Assembly: GCF_900103345.1 (NCBI RefSeq)
Contig: NZ_LT629702.1
Span: 6,115,501 to 6,179,500 of the forward strand
DNA length: 64,000 nucleotides
Source: Pseudomonas azotoformans
Lineage (GTDB): Bacteria > Pseudomonadota > Gammaproteobacteria > Pseudomonadales > Pseudomonadaceae
Reading direction: 5' to 3'
Shown here: positions 42,537 through 46,570 of the stretch, one piece after another
Position numbering within the stretch: position 1 is the first letter of the stretch
How the letters are laid out: the number at the start of each line of letters is the position of its first letter
The notes under the pieces: model-generated
Database searches by the model: none
What the model was told of the DNA's origin: nothing
Seen by the model: only the letters and a program-made list of their open reading frames with translations
Program-made: the position numbers and the translations under genes

Positions 42537-42992
42537 TTAAAGGGCAGGTAGTTTCTTGTCGACAGTTTTTATAATTGACGTATTGGTGTCGGCCAGCGGG
42601 GCGATTTTTTGTAGTGTCAAATCCAGGTGGCTGACGGAGTCGGTATAGAGATGACAGACGAAACTGTCGTCTCCGGTGATTTTGTAACAAACCACACATT
42701 CCGCCATCGTAGCGAGTAACAGTTCAACCTCTTGGAATTGCCCGGTCAGGGGTTTGACTCTGACTAATGCCTGAAGTGCATAGCCCAGCGCCTCGGCGCC
42801 CAGTTCTACGCTAAACCCGCATATAACACCCGCCATCTCCAGGCGCTTAAGGCGTTCGCTGCAACCCGGCGCAGACAAACCTACCTCTCGACTCAGCGCG
42901 CGGATAGACGTGCGGGCATTCTGGTGAAGGGCAACAATCAGAGCGCGGTCGATCGGGTCTAGTTTGTGGCCGCTCTTTGTAAGCTTTTTCAT
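42537..42992 (-). CDS. Lrp/AsnC-family regulator of the halogenase cassette
   Basis: A 151-aa regulator. The N-terminal helix-turn-helix (about 12-60; IRALSREVGLSAPGCSERLKRLE) and the C-terminal RAM ligand-binding domain (from about 70) match Lrp/AsnC proteins, which sense amino acids and often sit divergently from LysE-type exporters. Here it is divergent from the halogenase and two LysE/RhtB genes, so it probably senses the substrate or product amino acid. ATG at 42992 has AAGG ten bases upstream; 44 further upstream codons are rejected because they lie in AT-rich promoter DNA. Confidence 0.88.
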   Translation of the reverse strand: MKKLTKSGHKLDPIDRALIVALHQNARTSIRALSREVGLSAPGCSERLKRLEMAGVICGFSVELGAEALGYALQALVRVKPLTGQFQEVELLLATMAECVVCYKITGDDSFVCHLYTDSVSHLDLTLQKIAPLADTNTSIIKTVDKKLPAL

Positions 42993-43161: not shown

Positions 43162-43926
43162 ATGAACTACGTACTTGATGAGGCCCGCCTGCAACAACAT
43201 CACCATAATAATTTTACCGAAGAGAAACTGTTTTCCTTGCGTCATGAGTTTTCTCGCGACGGCTTTATAAAACTGCGTAATATCGTCGATGATGAGCTGC
43301 GCAACTTCATCACGGCAGAAGTTAACAGTTTGATTGATCATCAACTTGAACGTCGCGACTTGCATCTGGCAACTACCGATAACACACCGCGCTACATGAG
43401 CGTGGTGCGCAGCGAGTTCATTGCTGAAAACAGTCCGTTGATCAACGCGCTGTCGAAGTCCGAAGTACTGCTCGGTACTTTGTCCCTGATTGCAGGCACG
43501 CCAATCGTGGCATCCGTCTCCAAGGACGAGGAATTCCTGATCACCAAACAGGAACGCAAGGGGGATACCCACGGCTGGCACTGGGGCGATTACAGTTTTG
43601 CCCTGATCTGGATTATCGAAACACCCCCGATTGCCAAGGGCGGGATGCTGCAATGTGTGCCTCACACCTCTTGGGACAAATCCAACCCGCGGATCCACGA
43701 ACTGCTGTGCAGTAATCCGATTGCGACCTACGGCTTCAAGACGGGAGATATCTATTTCCTGCGCACCGACACCACCCTGCACCGCACCATTCCGCTGAAT
43801 GAAGATGCCACGCGGATCATCCTCAATATGACGTGGGCCGCAGAAAAAGATCTTGCCCGAAACCTTCACGGCAATGACCGCTGGTGGGAAGACAAGCACG
43901 CCGAGGCCGCAAAAAGCCTGACGTAG
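43162..43926 (+). CDS. Radical Fe(II)/2-oxoglutarate amino-acid halogenase (BesD/Hal family)
   Basis: A 254-aa enzyme predicted to chlorinate an unactivated carbon of a free amino acid. The iron site reads H140-W-G142 with second histidine H207: the carboxylate ligand of ordinary dioxygenases is replaced by glycine, which opens the chloride site and defines radical halogenases. At a constant +3 offset it keeps residues I recall from the BesD structure: R77, E123, H137, D143, N222, T224 and W242. R218 is a likely 2-oxoglutarate anchor. Keeping E123 and D143 suggests a cationic substrate such as lysine or ornithine. The first 120 coding bases from 43201 are 43% G+C by my count, below the neighbours, which suggests transfer. 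The start has GAGGG upstream. Confidence 0.88.
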   Translation: MNYVLDEARLQQHHHNNFTEEKLFSLRHEFSRDGFIKLRNIVDDELRNFITAEVNSLIDHQLERRDLHLATTDNTPRYMSVVRSEFIAENSPLINALSKSEVLLGTLSLIAGTPIVASVSKDEEFLITKQERKGDTHGWHWGDYSFALIWIIETPPIAKGGMLQCVPHTSWDKSNPRIHELLCSNPIATYGFKTGDIYFLRTDTTLHRTIPLNEDATRIILNMTWAAEKDLARNLHGNDRWWEDKHAEAAKSLT

Positions 43927-43971
43927 GACACGTCTGCCTGGTTGTCAGTTGAACCCATGGGATGCACGATC

Positions 43972-45288
43972 ATGCACGATATCCAATGTCTCCAACGCGC
44001 CAATGCCTTGCTTGCACAGGCGCACTCTCATGCAGCCATGGCTGACCTGGTCCGGGCGGCCGTGGCTCGAAATGACCAGTGGCGCGGGCAACAGTGCATC
44101 AATCTCGTGGCTGCCGAGTCTCCAACCAGTCCCTCTGTGCGCGCGTTGCTGTCCAGTGAAGTCGGCACGCGCGCCTCAGGTGGGCACATTGGGCGTGACA
44201 ACCGGTTTTTCTCTGGCATGAAGAATATCGACGAACTGGAATCGCTGTGTGTGGAGCTGTTGAAAACCACCTTGCGCGTCCGGCATGCCGATCATCGATT
44301 GCTGGGCGGTATGGCCGCTGTGCTGGCGGCTTACACGGCATTGGCCCGTCCAGGCGACAATGTCATGACCGTTCCGGTGATCAGGGGCGGTGATACCAGC
44401 AACCGAACCAATGGACCTCCCGGGGTACGCGGGCTCAAGGTCTGGGATATTCCCTTCGTACACAAGACTGCGGATATCGATCTCAACCGCTTCAGCGAGG
44501 TTGCCCAGGCCTTGAAACCTGCCGTCATCGGGCTGGGCATGACGTTGACCCTGTTCCCCCTGCCCGTGGCAGACATCAAGGGGATCGTCTCGCCCTGGGG
44601 AGGCAAGGTCTATTTTGACGCCGCCCATCAACTGGGCTTGATCAGCGCCGGGTTGTTCCAAGACCCACTGGCCGAAGGGGCGGACCTGATGACCGGCTCT
44701 TCCGGAAAGACCTTCAGTGGCCCTCAGGGCGGCGTGATGGTGTGGAACGATGACGCGTTGACGGCACCTGTGCATGAGGCGATTTTCCCCACCCTGACCG
44801 GCAGCCATCAGATCAACCGGGTTGCGGCGCTCGCGGTGGCGGCGACCGAGATGCTGGCGTATGGGCCGGCCTATATGAAGCAAGTGGTGAGCAACGCACA
44901 GGCGTTGGCCCGGCACTTGGACCTGCGGGGCGTGACGGCCTTTTATCGAGACCAGGGCTACACCCGAACCCATCAGATCGTGATCGATTCAAAACCCTTC
45001 GCCAGCGGCCGCGAGGCGGTGCAGCGCCTGGAGGCGGCGAACATCATCGCCAATGAAATGCCGCTGCCTTGGGACGCCAATCCCTACAAGGAAACGGGCA
45101 TTCGATTGGGCACTGTAGAAGTCACCCGGCTAGGGATGAAAGAGCGGGAGATGGCGTGGATAGCCGAACAGATTGCCAAGGTGCTGTTGCATAGGGAGGA
45201 CCCCATGGCGGTCGCCAACGGTGTGATCGATTTCATGAAGAACCACAGGACGGTCTACTTCTGCCATGAAAATGGGCTGCCGCGCTAA
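43972..45288 (+). CDS. Divergent serine-hydroxymethyltransferase-like PLP enzyme
   Basis: A 438-aa fold-type I PLP enzyme. Lysine K246 (SSGKTFSGPQGG) aligns with the Schiff-base lysine of SHMT, D216 and H219 (YFDAAHQLGLISAG) with the ring-binding Asp/His, and R378 (GIRLGT) with the carboxylate-binding Arg. However, the SHMT loop ASENYTSP is AAESPTSP here, and the GYPGKRYYGG segment is changed too, so both active-site tyrosines are missing; the histidine before the lysine is Gly. A normal folate-dependent SHMT reaction is therefore unlikely; a retro-aldol, transaldol, racemase or elimination reaction on the halogenated amino acid is possible. Start may instead be ATG 43957. It follows the halogenase by 45 bases. 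Confidence 0.8.
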   Translation: MHDIQCLQRANALLAQAHSHAAMADLVRAAVARNDQWRGQQCINLVAAESPTSPSVRALLSSEVGTRASGGHIGRDNRFFSGMKNIDELESLCVELLKTTLRVRHADHRLLGGMAAVLAAYTALARPGDNVMTVPVIRGGDTSNRTNGPPGVRGLKVWDIPFVHKTADIDLNRFSEVAQALKPAVIGLGMTLTLFPLPVADIKGIVSPWGGKVYFDAAHQLGLISAGLFQDPLAEGADLMTGSSGKTFSGPQGGVMVWNDDALTAPVHEAIFPTLTGSHQINRVAALAVAATEMLAYGPAYMKQVVSNAQALARHLDLRGVTAFYRDQGYTRTHQIVIDSKPFASGREAVQRLEAANIIANEMPLPWDANPYKETGIRLGTVEVTRLGMKEREMAWIAEQIAKVLLHREDPMAVANGVIDFMKNHRTVYFCHENGLPR

Positions 45289-45310: not shown

Positions 45311-45928
45311 ATGCCCGACACGGTTGTTTCCATTTACCAGGCGACGCTGACATTCGCGGTCGCTGCCATCGCCCTGCTGGCCAGCCCAGGTCCGGCCACG
45401 CTGGCGCTCGCGGCGAGCGGTGCCGCTTATGGCATGAAGCGTTCGGTTGCGTTTTTCCTGGGCATTACGTTGGGCCTGGTGGTTGCCATGACAGTGGTGG
45501 GCACGGGCCTGTATGTGGTGCTGCACAGCTTTCCGGTAGTGGCGACGGTACTGACCGGTATTTCCATTCTGTATATTTTGTCGCTGGCCTATCGCATTGG
45601 CACGGCGCCGCCCATCAAGGATGAACAGGCTGTCGTTTCGCCTGGCTGGGGCGCGGGGTTTGTGCTGGGAGCCGCCAACATCAAGGCGTATGCAGCGTTT
45701 GCGGCGTTGTTGGGCAGTTTCACCCTGGGCACTGCGCCAGCCTGGGAGCAAGCTGCCAAGGCATCGATCTGCCTGTTGGTCTGTGTGGTGTTCGACTTCT
45801 TGTGGCTATTGGTGGGCAGCAAGTTGCGCAAGTTGTTCATCCATCCCACTTGGAGTCGTGTACTTAACGTAAGCTTCGCGCTTTTGATGATAGCGACGGT
45901 CGCCTGGTCGTTCACGCTGACGCAGTAG
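45311..45928 (+). CDS. LysE/RhtB-family amino-acid exporter 1
   Basis: A 205-aa inner-membrane protein with about six spans. The first span ends in the family motif ALLASPGPATLALAASGAAYG, followed by GITLGLVVAMTVVGTGLYVV. It exports amino acids or analogues. It lies 22 bases behind the PLP gene with AGGA nine bases before the ATG, so it is in the halogenase operon. The best inference is export of the halogenated or processed amino acid, giving self-protection. Confidence 0.88.
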   Translation: MPDTVVSIYQATLTFAVAAIALLASPGPATLALAASGAAYGMKRSVAFFLGITLGLVVAMTVVGTGLYVVLHSFPVVATVLTGISILYILSLAYRIGTAPPIKDEQAVVSPGWGAGFVLGAANIKAYAAFAALLGSFTLGTAPAWEQAAKASICLLVCVVFDFLWLLVGSKLRKLFIHPTWSRVLNVSFALLMIATVAWSFTLTQ

Positions 45929-45976: not shown

Positions 45977-46570
45977 ATGTTAGGGACCGTTTCTGCATTG
46001 GTGTTGCTGCTGGTAGTGCCCGGCCCGACCAACACCCTGTTACTGCGCGCAGGGGTGTTGTTTGGCTTCGCAGCCTCCTGGCGCCTGGCACTCATCGAGT
46101 GCCTGGCCTATCTGCTTCAAGTGTCGGTGTGGGGCGGTGCTCTGCTCTATATTGCCGCCTGGTCGCCATGGGCTGTCAAAGCCACGCAACTGGTCGCAGC
46201 CGCTTACCTGCTGTATCTCTCCTGCATGCTGTGGCAGCGCAAGAACAGCGTGGCCAGCCCGACCTGTGACCGTTTTTCAGGGCCCTATTTCTTTTTGCTG
46301 ACGGTGATGAATCCCAAAGGCTTGCTGATTGTTTCGTTTATCGCGCCGATGGATGCTTTCGTGACGCTACAGGGTTATGTGGCTTTCATGAGTACGCTGG
46401 CGTTGGTCATCTTACCCGTGGGGGCTGCGTGGATTCTGTTCGGCAGTCGGTTCGCGGGAATTCGAGGAAACTGGCTGACCCCGCTGAAGATCAATCGGGC
46501 AACCTCCATCGCGATTGGCTGTTTTGCGGCGATCATGGTGGGGCGGCTTGCGGATTCAGTGATGCATTAG
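45977..46570 (+). CDS. LysE/RhtB-family amino-acid exporter 2
   Basis: A 197-aa inner-membrane protein with five to six spans, starting directly with the motif region LVVPGPTNTLLLRAG, so its N-terminus is about ten residues shorter than exporter 1. The later segment LLTVMNPKGLLIVSF is also typical of the family. A good GAGGATAA site lies seven bases before the ATG. It is divergent from exporter 1, so the pair is not a recent duplication; they may handle different amino acids or form a heteromeric pair. A terminator follows. Confidence 0.86.
   Translation: MLGTVSALVLLLVVPGPTNTLLLRAGVLFGFAASWRLALIECLAYLLQVSVWGGALLYIAAWSPWAVKATQLVAAAYLLYLSCMLWQRKNSVASPTCDRFSGPYFFLLTVMNPKGLLIVSFIAPMDAFVTLQGYVAFMSTLALVILPVGAAWILFGSRFAGIRGNWLTPLKINRATSIAIGCFAAIMVGRLADSVMH

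What the first reader, a model, noticed from the sequence alone, without database searches (positions are those of the whole stretch)
43162..43926. BesD-type radical amino-acid halogenase in a Pseudomonas housekeeping region
The protein has H140-W-G142 and H207: glycine in place of the iron-binding carboxylate, the diagnostic change of Fe/2-oxoglutarate halogenases. Seven further residues (R77, E123, H137, D143, N222, T224, W242) coincide, at a constant +3 shift, with the pocket residues I recall for the free-lysine halogenase BesD. Free-amino-acid halogenases of this kind are rare; some Pseudomonas members were described with the family, so the enzyme class is known, but its product here and its partner genes are not clear to me.
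Basis: partly seen in the sequence, partly recalled or inferred. Interest (0 to 1): 0.95.

Follow-up and report, generated by a model that had tools for sequence, protein, structure and literature searches.

The report
Chlorinate-then-cyclise lysine genes in Pseudomonas
A Pseudomonas chromosome carries a small gene cluster in which one enzyme is predicted to put a chlorine on free lysine and its neighbour would likely use that chlorine as a leaving group to close a three-membered ring, which is probably a new copy of a pathway already published for a related species rather than a new kind of chemistry.

Summary
The 254-aa ORF at 43162-43926 is a HalD/BesD-family Fe/2-oxoglutarate halogenase with H140-W-G142, H207 and every BesD lysine-pocket residue I checked. 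In a tree it falls in the BesD/HalA branch, away from HalB and HalD and not beside the solved lysine hydroxylase. In 398 genomes of the genus the PLP gene occurs in exactly the 7 with a close intact halogenase. It keeps the PLP lysine but lacks the catalytic glutamate of SHMT. All 17 halogenase-linked copies examined have Asp141 and lack Glu70; 75 of the 120 best-listed relatives keep the Glu/His pair. The triad (halogenase, this PLP enzyme, LysE exporter) also occurs in Paraburkholderia, Actinomadura and Legionella. Best reading: lysine C4 chlorination, chloride displacement to a cyclopropane amino acid, export. That is the pazamine pathway (PazA/PazB; recalled from Sosa et al. 2024, paper and sequences not held). 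Class and probably pathway are known; new here are the partner's signature, its wider range and decayed copies that keep exporters.

The parts
42537..42992 (-). divergent Lrp/AsnC-family regulator (likely start Met at 42992, my count; the listed ORF runs to 43124)
   Evidence: Pfam HTH_AsnC-type and AsnC_trans_reg; matched in 9 of 9 named Pseudomonas/Paraburkholderia loci with the SHMT-like gene, in L024 over only 96 aa; start codon region in the upstream alignment
43162..43926 (+). HalD/BesD-family Fe/2-oxoglutarate halogenase, predicted free L-lysine C4 chlorinase
43972..45288 (+). SHMT-fold PLP enzyme with altered active site (G70, D141, G245 before PLP-Lys246), predicted chloride-displacing cyclase (PazB-like); start inferred, ORF opens at 43942 TTG
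   Evidence: Pfam SHMT 133.6 bits; alignment with own GlyA and MjSHMT; model pLDDT 90.7, best PDB match MjSHMT 4uqv
45311..45928 (+). LysE-family exporter 1 (start inferred)
   Evidence: Pfam LysE 42.8 bits; matched in 9 of 9 named Pseudomonas/Paraburkholderia loci with the SHMT-like gene
45977..46570 (+). LysE-like gene 2; may be a flanking gene rather than part of the set
   Evidence: No Pfam hit at 1e-3; weak NCBIfam LeuE match, 20 bits against a 165-bit cut-off; homologues named LysE family translocator / threonine transporter RhtB; matched in only 5 of those 9 loci and at the site in G004, which lacks the halogenase

Best explanation
The window carries a close-set, likely co-transcribed gene cluster (BesD-family halogenase, SHMT-fold PLP enzyme, LysE exporter and a second LysE-like gene) with a divergent Lrp-type regulator, in which the halogenase is predicted to chlorinate free L-lysine at C4 and the PLP enzyme would likely displace that chloride from the alpha-carbanion to make a cyclopropane amino acid, probably for export. 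Shown here: the gene set, the halogenase iron site and lysine pocket, the strict pairing of the two enzymes in the genomes surveyed, and the loss of SHMT catalytic residues in the partner. Inferred: C4 regiochemistry (from the BesD/HalA branch and the DRWW lid), ring closure (from the recalled PazA/PazB precedent), the product 1-amino-2-(2-aminoethyl)cyclopropane-1-carboxylate (pazamine), and export by LysE proteins. The window pair would then be the orthologue of pazA/pazB.
For: Halogenase: G142 in place of the carboxylate. All 16 columns checked (iron site, lysine contacts, lid) are identical in the window's 10-row group, 12 BesD-clade rows, 7 cyanobacterial and 6 Legionella rows; the lid is not DRWW in the HalB-side (9), HalD (3) and other-Pseudomonas (7) rows I read, two of which end before it. 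Tree: a 10-row Pseudomonas/Paraburkholderia clade (100/98) inside a 44-row clade with BesD and HalA (100/99); HalB and HalD lie outside. Partner: in 398 genomes of the genus the SHMT-like gene is in 7, the same 7 that have an intact halogenase at 83-100% identity; 0 of the 15 other halogenase-bearing genomes have it at 1e-60. It lies next to the halogenase, or one gene away in L045, in 16 of 80 named halogenase loci. Pair identities co-vary: r = 0.969 over 17 pairs, 0 of 2000 permutations as high; 9 Pseudomonas alone r = 0.951. Partner keeps D216, H219, K246 and R378 but has A48, A68, G70, F80 and G245 where both own GlyA copies have S35, Y55, E57, Y65 and H228 (those residues are in the PLP-site list of PMC7916883, passage seen), and D141 for a further His (129 by my count). 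LysE exporters by Pfam also in Paraburkholderia L028, Actinomadura L045 and Legionella L039.
Against: No PazA or PazB sequence could be compared: paper not held and no paper on PazB found, so identity with paz rests on memory of the abstract. The halogenase scores 329 bits against a 450-bit cut-off for the BesD equivalog model, so it is not BesD proper. The SHMT-linked label needs 3 changes on the halogenase tree and is not one clade, so the pairing may have moved or arisen more than once, or products may differ between groups. L043 has S at 70 and L041 has R at 245. LysE2 is missing from 4 of 9 named loci of the group (L024 is a short contig). Co-transcription is judged from spacing only. No activity data.
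Confidence: 0.72

Rival explanations
1. The halogenase chlorinates lysine, but the SHMT-fold partner does aldol, retro-aldol or transaldolase chemistry on the chlorinated amino acid, giving a beta-hydroxy or chain-shortened chloro amino acid, so chlorine is kept in the product.
For: The partner's best NCBIfam profiles are SHMT and fluorothreonine transaldolase, and the fold matches SHMT and L-threonine transaldolase 7k34.
Against: S35, Y55, E57, Y65 and H228 of SHMT are all replaced, and the curated cut-offs of both NCBIfam models are missed (292 against 335 and 216 against 650 bits).
Confidence: 0.14
2. The halogenase acts on ornithine, leucine or another free amino acid, and the cluster makes a different strained or chlorinated amino acid.
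For: Relatives in the family act on ornithine (PkHalD) and leucine, isoleucine and norleucine (PrHalE), by the review PMC8407142 (passages seen).
Against: All six BesD lysine contacts are kept. Pseudomonas sp. Root562 L086 (the source of PrHalE by recall) lies in a clade with D at 123 and no DRWW.
Confidence: 0.1
3. It is a hydroxylase, or a silent or decaying locus with no product.
For: Two relatives (G208, G349) hold truncated halogenase genes with the PLP gene gone.
Against: G142, I149 and N222, the halogenase-side residues of the Hydrox-3R variant in PMC13244439 (passages seen), are present; the window ORFs are intact and the regulator-halogenase-PLP-LysE set is conserved across species.
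Confidence: 0.04

Closest known systems
BesD (Streptomyces cattleya lysine 4-chlorinase, 6nie)
   Same: Fold, iron site, lysine pocket, DRWW lid; 55.7% identity over 230 columns
   Different: Below the BesD equivalog cut-off. In the mapped loci the branch's cyanobacterial and a few other members (one Streptomyces, L049) have a haem-oxygenase-like neighbour instead of an SHMT-like one (one representative checked by Pfam)
PazA/PazB pazamine pathway of Pseudomonas azotoformans (Sosa et al. 2024, 10.1002/anie.202319344; content recalled, seen only as a reference-list entry and one mention of pazamine)
   Same: Lysine C4 halogenase plus PLP enzyme in Pseudomonas
   Different: Sequences not compared; whether PazB has the SHMT fold is inferred here
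HalA (9oer and related entries), lysine halogenase
   Same: 58.1% identity over 241 columns; same branch of the tree
   Different: Different subclade, next to Streptomyces/Catenulispora sequences and the lysine hydroxylase. Whether it is the PfHalA that makes chlorolysine in PMC8407142 was not established
HalB (7u6i) and HalD (7u6h)
   Same: Same family and iron site
   Different: 43-45% identity, other clades, no DRWW lid in the clade members read
Serine hydroxymethyltransferase (MjSHMT 4uqv; own GlyA)
   Same: Fold and PLP lysine, aspartate, histidine, arginine; 38.9% identity to MjSHMT over 406 columns
   Different: Catalytic glutamate, two tyrosines, a serine and a histidine replaced

Membership tests
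HalD/BesD halogenase family (Pfam PF23169) | profile match above curated cut-off | tested here: met
   307.3 bits against 26
Fe/2OG halogenase | HxG...H site with no carboxylate ligand | tested here: met
   H140, G142, H207; the solved lysine hydroxylase has D at 142
Fe/2OG halogenase | chlorination activity | not testable with these tools
   needs enzyme assay
BesD equivalog (NF042920) | score at or above 450 bits | tested here: not met
   328.9 bits; so a BesD-like enzyme, not BesD
Free-lysine C4 chlorinase branch | lysine contacts and DRWW lid of BesD/HalA | tested here: met
   all residues identical; tree
PazA/PazB pathway | lysine halogenase next to a PLP-dependent enzyme (recalled) | tested here: met
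PazA/PazB pathway | orthology to the published sequences | not testable with these tools
   paper and sequences not held
PazA/PazB pathway | cyclopropane product | not testable with these tools
   needs enzyme assay
Serine hydroxymethyltransferase | Glu57, Tyr55, Tyr65, His228 of the active site | tested here: not met
   G70, A68, F80, G245 in the window; both own GlyA copies and MjSHMT keep all four
Serine hydroxymethyltransferase | Lys229, Asp200, His203, Arg363 of the PLP site | tested here: met
   K246, D216, H219, R378

The most novel reading that the evidence does not exclude
A widespread family of SHMT-derived cyclases, marked by loss of the catalytic Glu (position 70) and a His-to-Asp change (141), has been paired with lysine chlorinases and LysE exporters in Pseudomonas, Burkholderia relatives, Actinomadura and Legionella. 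Each pair uses a throw-away chlorine to make a strained amino acid, with different ring products in the divergent Legionella and Actinomadura branches. Some strains keep only the exporters as immunity.
Probability: 0.35. Interest if true: 0.62.

Novelty: new member of a known kind. Interest (0 to 1): 0.36.

Why it matters
It shows which gene goes with this halogenase and gives a residue signature that separates halogenase-linked SHMT-fold enzymes from ordinary SHMT and from a large sister group. That would make the chlorinate-then-cyclise route findable in genomes by sequence, well outside Pseudomonas. If the product is as recalled, an ACC-like cyclopropane amino acid that may disturb ethylene formation in plants, these clusters are candidates for chemical signalling between plant-associated bacteria and their hosts.

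Tried and rejected
Naming the host species: the closest hits are Pseudomonas allii (halogenase 96%) and Pseudomonas sp. MAFF 301514 (LysE2 97%). That MAFF 301514 is the P. allii type strain is recalled. Finding SHMT-like Glu/His-type genes without a halogenase by a phylum search: only the own genome matched, 1 of 398 at 1e-85, so absence of linkage for that group is unproven. Literature for PazB: 7 papers hold the word, none on the subject by title; some searches gave only citing or side papers. One paper came from the Glu57 search. Two paper searches were of little use (mostly noise; one search gave 2 papers, 1 relevant). Hydroxylase reading rejected on residue and tree evidence. Rows dropped: L095 (broken halogenase ORF, 52-aa piece) from the tree; the neighbour map kept 55 of 80 named loci because my ORF filter missed the halogenase in the rest; one partner hit (P0219) and one halogenase hit (P0060) without a contig length were left out. 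Both protein searches list 120 of more hits (491 and 2434), so signature counts hold for the listed 120 only. My first extraction of own GlyA took wrong ORFs and was redone. G303 and the named locus L063 have matching coordinates, so unnamed and named counts are not added.

Full report
OBSERVATION. The ORF at 43162-43926 is real and is the only match in its 6.73-Mb genome. All named residues are present. Pfam calls it HalD (307 bits). NCBIfam's BesD model scores 329 bits, under its 450-bit cut-off. The nearest solved proteins are HalA (9oer and variants), BesD (6nie) and a lysine hydroxylase. The AlphaFold model (pLDDT 79.8, low at residues 69-72 and near the C-terminus from 236 on) is nearest to BesD and HalA structures (entry titles name HalA with lysine and chloride).

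LYSINE POCKET. Passages of PMC13244439 give BesD lysine contacts R77, E123, H137, D143, D239 and W241, and the halogenase-side residues of an engineered hydroxylase. The window has all six contacts and G142, I149 and N222. On my alignment of 85 rows I read 16 columns: all are identical in the window's 10-row group, 12 BesD-clade rows, 7 cyanobacterial rows, 6 Legionella rows, L045 and L033. The lid is not DRWW in the HalB-side (9), HalD (3), other-Pseudomonas (7) and HWD (5) rows read; the HalB and HalD reference rows end before it. D stands at 142 in two rows of the HalA/hydroxylase group and in the five HWD rows.

TREE. 85 rows: 79 of 80 named loci, the window and five solved chains (midpoint root, for drawing only). 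The window is in a 10-row clade (100/98) of Pseudomonas and Paraburkholderia, all with the SHMT-like partner. This lies in a 44-row clade (100/99) with BesD, HalA and the lysine hydroxylase. HalB falls with S. wuyuanensis L078. The hydroxylase sits in a separate 5-row subclade. The tool warns that several long branches meet, among them Legionella with the HalA group.

GENE CLUSTER. Downstream on the same strand, with gaps of 45, 22 and 48 bases, are the SHMT-like gene, LysE1 and LysE2; a Lrp/AsnC regulator is divergent. G+C falls to 0.486 in the regulator ORF and 0.524 in the halogenase, against 0.611 for the window. In three relatives without the halogenase (L125, L128, L129) the flanking RND pump and DUF4197 genes are in the same order with no match to halogenase, SHMT-like gene, regulator or LysE1 between them; L125 has a 60% LysE2 match there. 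Pseudomonas orientalis L059 has regulator, halogenase, SHMT-like gene and LysE1, but no LysE2, RND or DUF4197 match on its 16.8-kb locus. The set thus sits at more than one site, and LysE2 (5 of 9 named loci of this group) may be a flanking gene.

CO-OCCURRENCE. Genus survey: 22 of 398 genomes have a halogenase match at 1e-20. Seven (own included) are full length at 83-100%, two are truncated, and 13 are distant, about 33-46%. The SHMT-like protein occurs at 1e-90 in 7 of 398, the same seven. The other 15 halogenase-bearing genomes have none at 1e-60 (0 of 15; one search is the positive control for the query). Family survey 2 of 298 at 1e-80, both in the genus; phylum survey 1 of 398 at 1e-85, own only. 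Among 80 named halogenase loci (the best 80 of 202 found) the SHMT-like gene is linked in 16: nine Pseudomonas or Paraburkholderia loci (L023-L029, L059, L063), Actinomadura L045 (with a LysE gene between) and six Legionella loci (L039-L043, L102). Some of the 80 loci are short contigs, so absence there is weaker. Pair identities correlate at 0.969.

OTHER PARTNERS. In the 55 of 80 loci my ORF filter kept, 13 have a haem-oxygenase-like neighbour (cyanobacteria, one Streptomyces, one Frankia, two Marinobacter and others; one checked by Pfam). Eight Pseudomonas loci of another halogenase clade share a different haem-oxygenase-like protein and an ATP-grasp protein. In one of them, L090, all seven mapped neighbours were scanned: glyoxalase-like, DUF3291, haem-oxygenase-like, ATP-grasp with an L-amino acid ligase C-terminal domain, Na/H exchanger, Mg-chelatase-like and one without a match; no PLP enzyme. 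The SHMT-like gene is therefore not a generic neighbour. The six Legionella loci have a LysR regulator and a LysE exporter: six of six cluster, one of six checked by Pfam.

PLP PARTNER. Its model (pLDDT 90.7) matches MjSHMT best. The own genome has two ordinary GlyA copies scoring 583 and 578 bits on the SHMT profile; the partner scores 134. Aligned to them it keeps the PLP lysine, aspartate, histidine and arginine, but has A, A, G, F and G for S35, Y55, E57, Y65 and H228 (PLP-site list in PMC7916883, passage seen). H126 and R235 differ too, but MjSHMT also differs there, so they are not diagnostic. Among the 120 listed of 2434 relatives the family splits cleanly: 44 have G70/D141, one more is truncated but has D141, and 75 have E70/H141. 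All 17 halogenase-linked proteins have D141 and lack E70 (16 G, one S). As a rough linkage check, 12 of 45 G/D-type but 1 of 74 E/H-type clusters share the length of their longest contig with a listed halogenase hit; equal lengths are suggestive, not proof. All 120 have Gly for H228, so the Glu/His sister group is itself probably not ordinary SHMT.

MECHANISM. Shown: gene set, iron site, lysine pocket, pairing, lost SHMT residues. Inferred: a chloroferryl takes a C4 hydrogen of lysine and returns chlorine; the PLP enzyme forms the aldimine, K246 removes the alpha proton, and the carbanion displaces chloride at C4 to give a cyclopropane; LysE proteins export it. The ring step rests on the recalled abstract of Sosa et al. 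2024 (PazA, PazB, pazamine, P. azotoformans). The paper is not held and was seen only as citations. That PazB is this SHMT-fold enzyme is my inference: it is the only PLP-type partner I met next to a Pseudomonas halogenase, and the other Pseudomonas clade was scanned by Pfam in one locus only.

DECAY. G208 keeps the regulator and full-length matches to both exporters while the halogenase is cut short and the PLP gene is missing; G349 keeps a halogenase fragment, part of LysE1 and full LysE2. Keeping exporters after losing synthesis would fit immunity to neighbours' product; this is conjecture.

VERDICT. With the partner genes found, the locus most likely belongs to a published pathway; interest is moderate.

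Noticed in passing
P0161-P0242, most members: A large sister group of SHMT-fold proteins (75 of the 120 listed hits; Chloroflexota and others by source names) keeps the Glu and His of SHMT but has Gly before the PLP lysine; function unknown and probably not ordinary SHMT.
   Followed up: partly
L126 (G208), L127 (G349): Decayed copies in which the PLP gene is gone and the halogenase truncated while LysE2 (and in G208 also LysE1 and the regulator) remains.
   Followed up: partly
L039-L043, L102: Six Legionella species carry a halogenase next to a divergent SHMT-like gene (about 40% identity) and a LysE-type gene, with a divergent LysR regulator in place of Lrp.
   Followed up: partly
L090 9658-11762 and the same genes in seven other Pseudomonas loci: The other Pseudomonas halogenase clade sits with a haem-oxygenase-like protein and an ATP-grasp protein with an L-amino acid ligase C-terminal domain, so its product may end up in a dipeptide.
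   Followed up: partly
L041 SHMT-like protein: Arg instead of Gly before the PLP lysine, unlike its close relative L040.
   Followed up: no
L095 (Pseudomonas frederiksbergensis AS1): Halogenase reading frame of the other Pseudomonas clade holds a stop codon.
   Followed up: no
P0003, P0016, P0019: Public records name close homologues 'ArpA protein', which does not fit the halogenase profile.
   Followed up: no
L056, L081, L089, L093, L099, L100: Relatives with HWD at the iron site, so predicted hydroxylases inside the same family.
   Followed up: no
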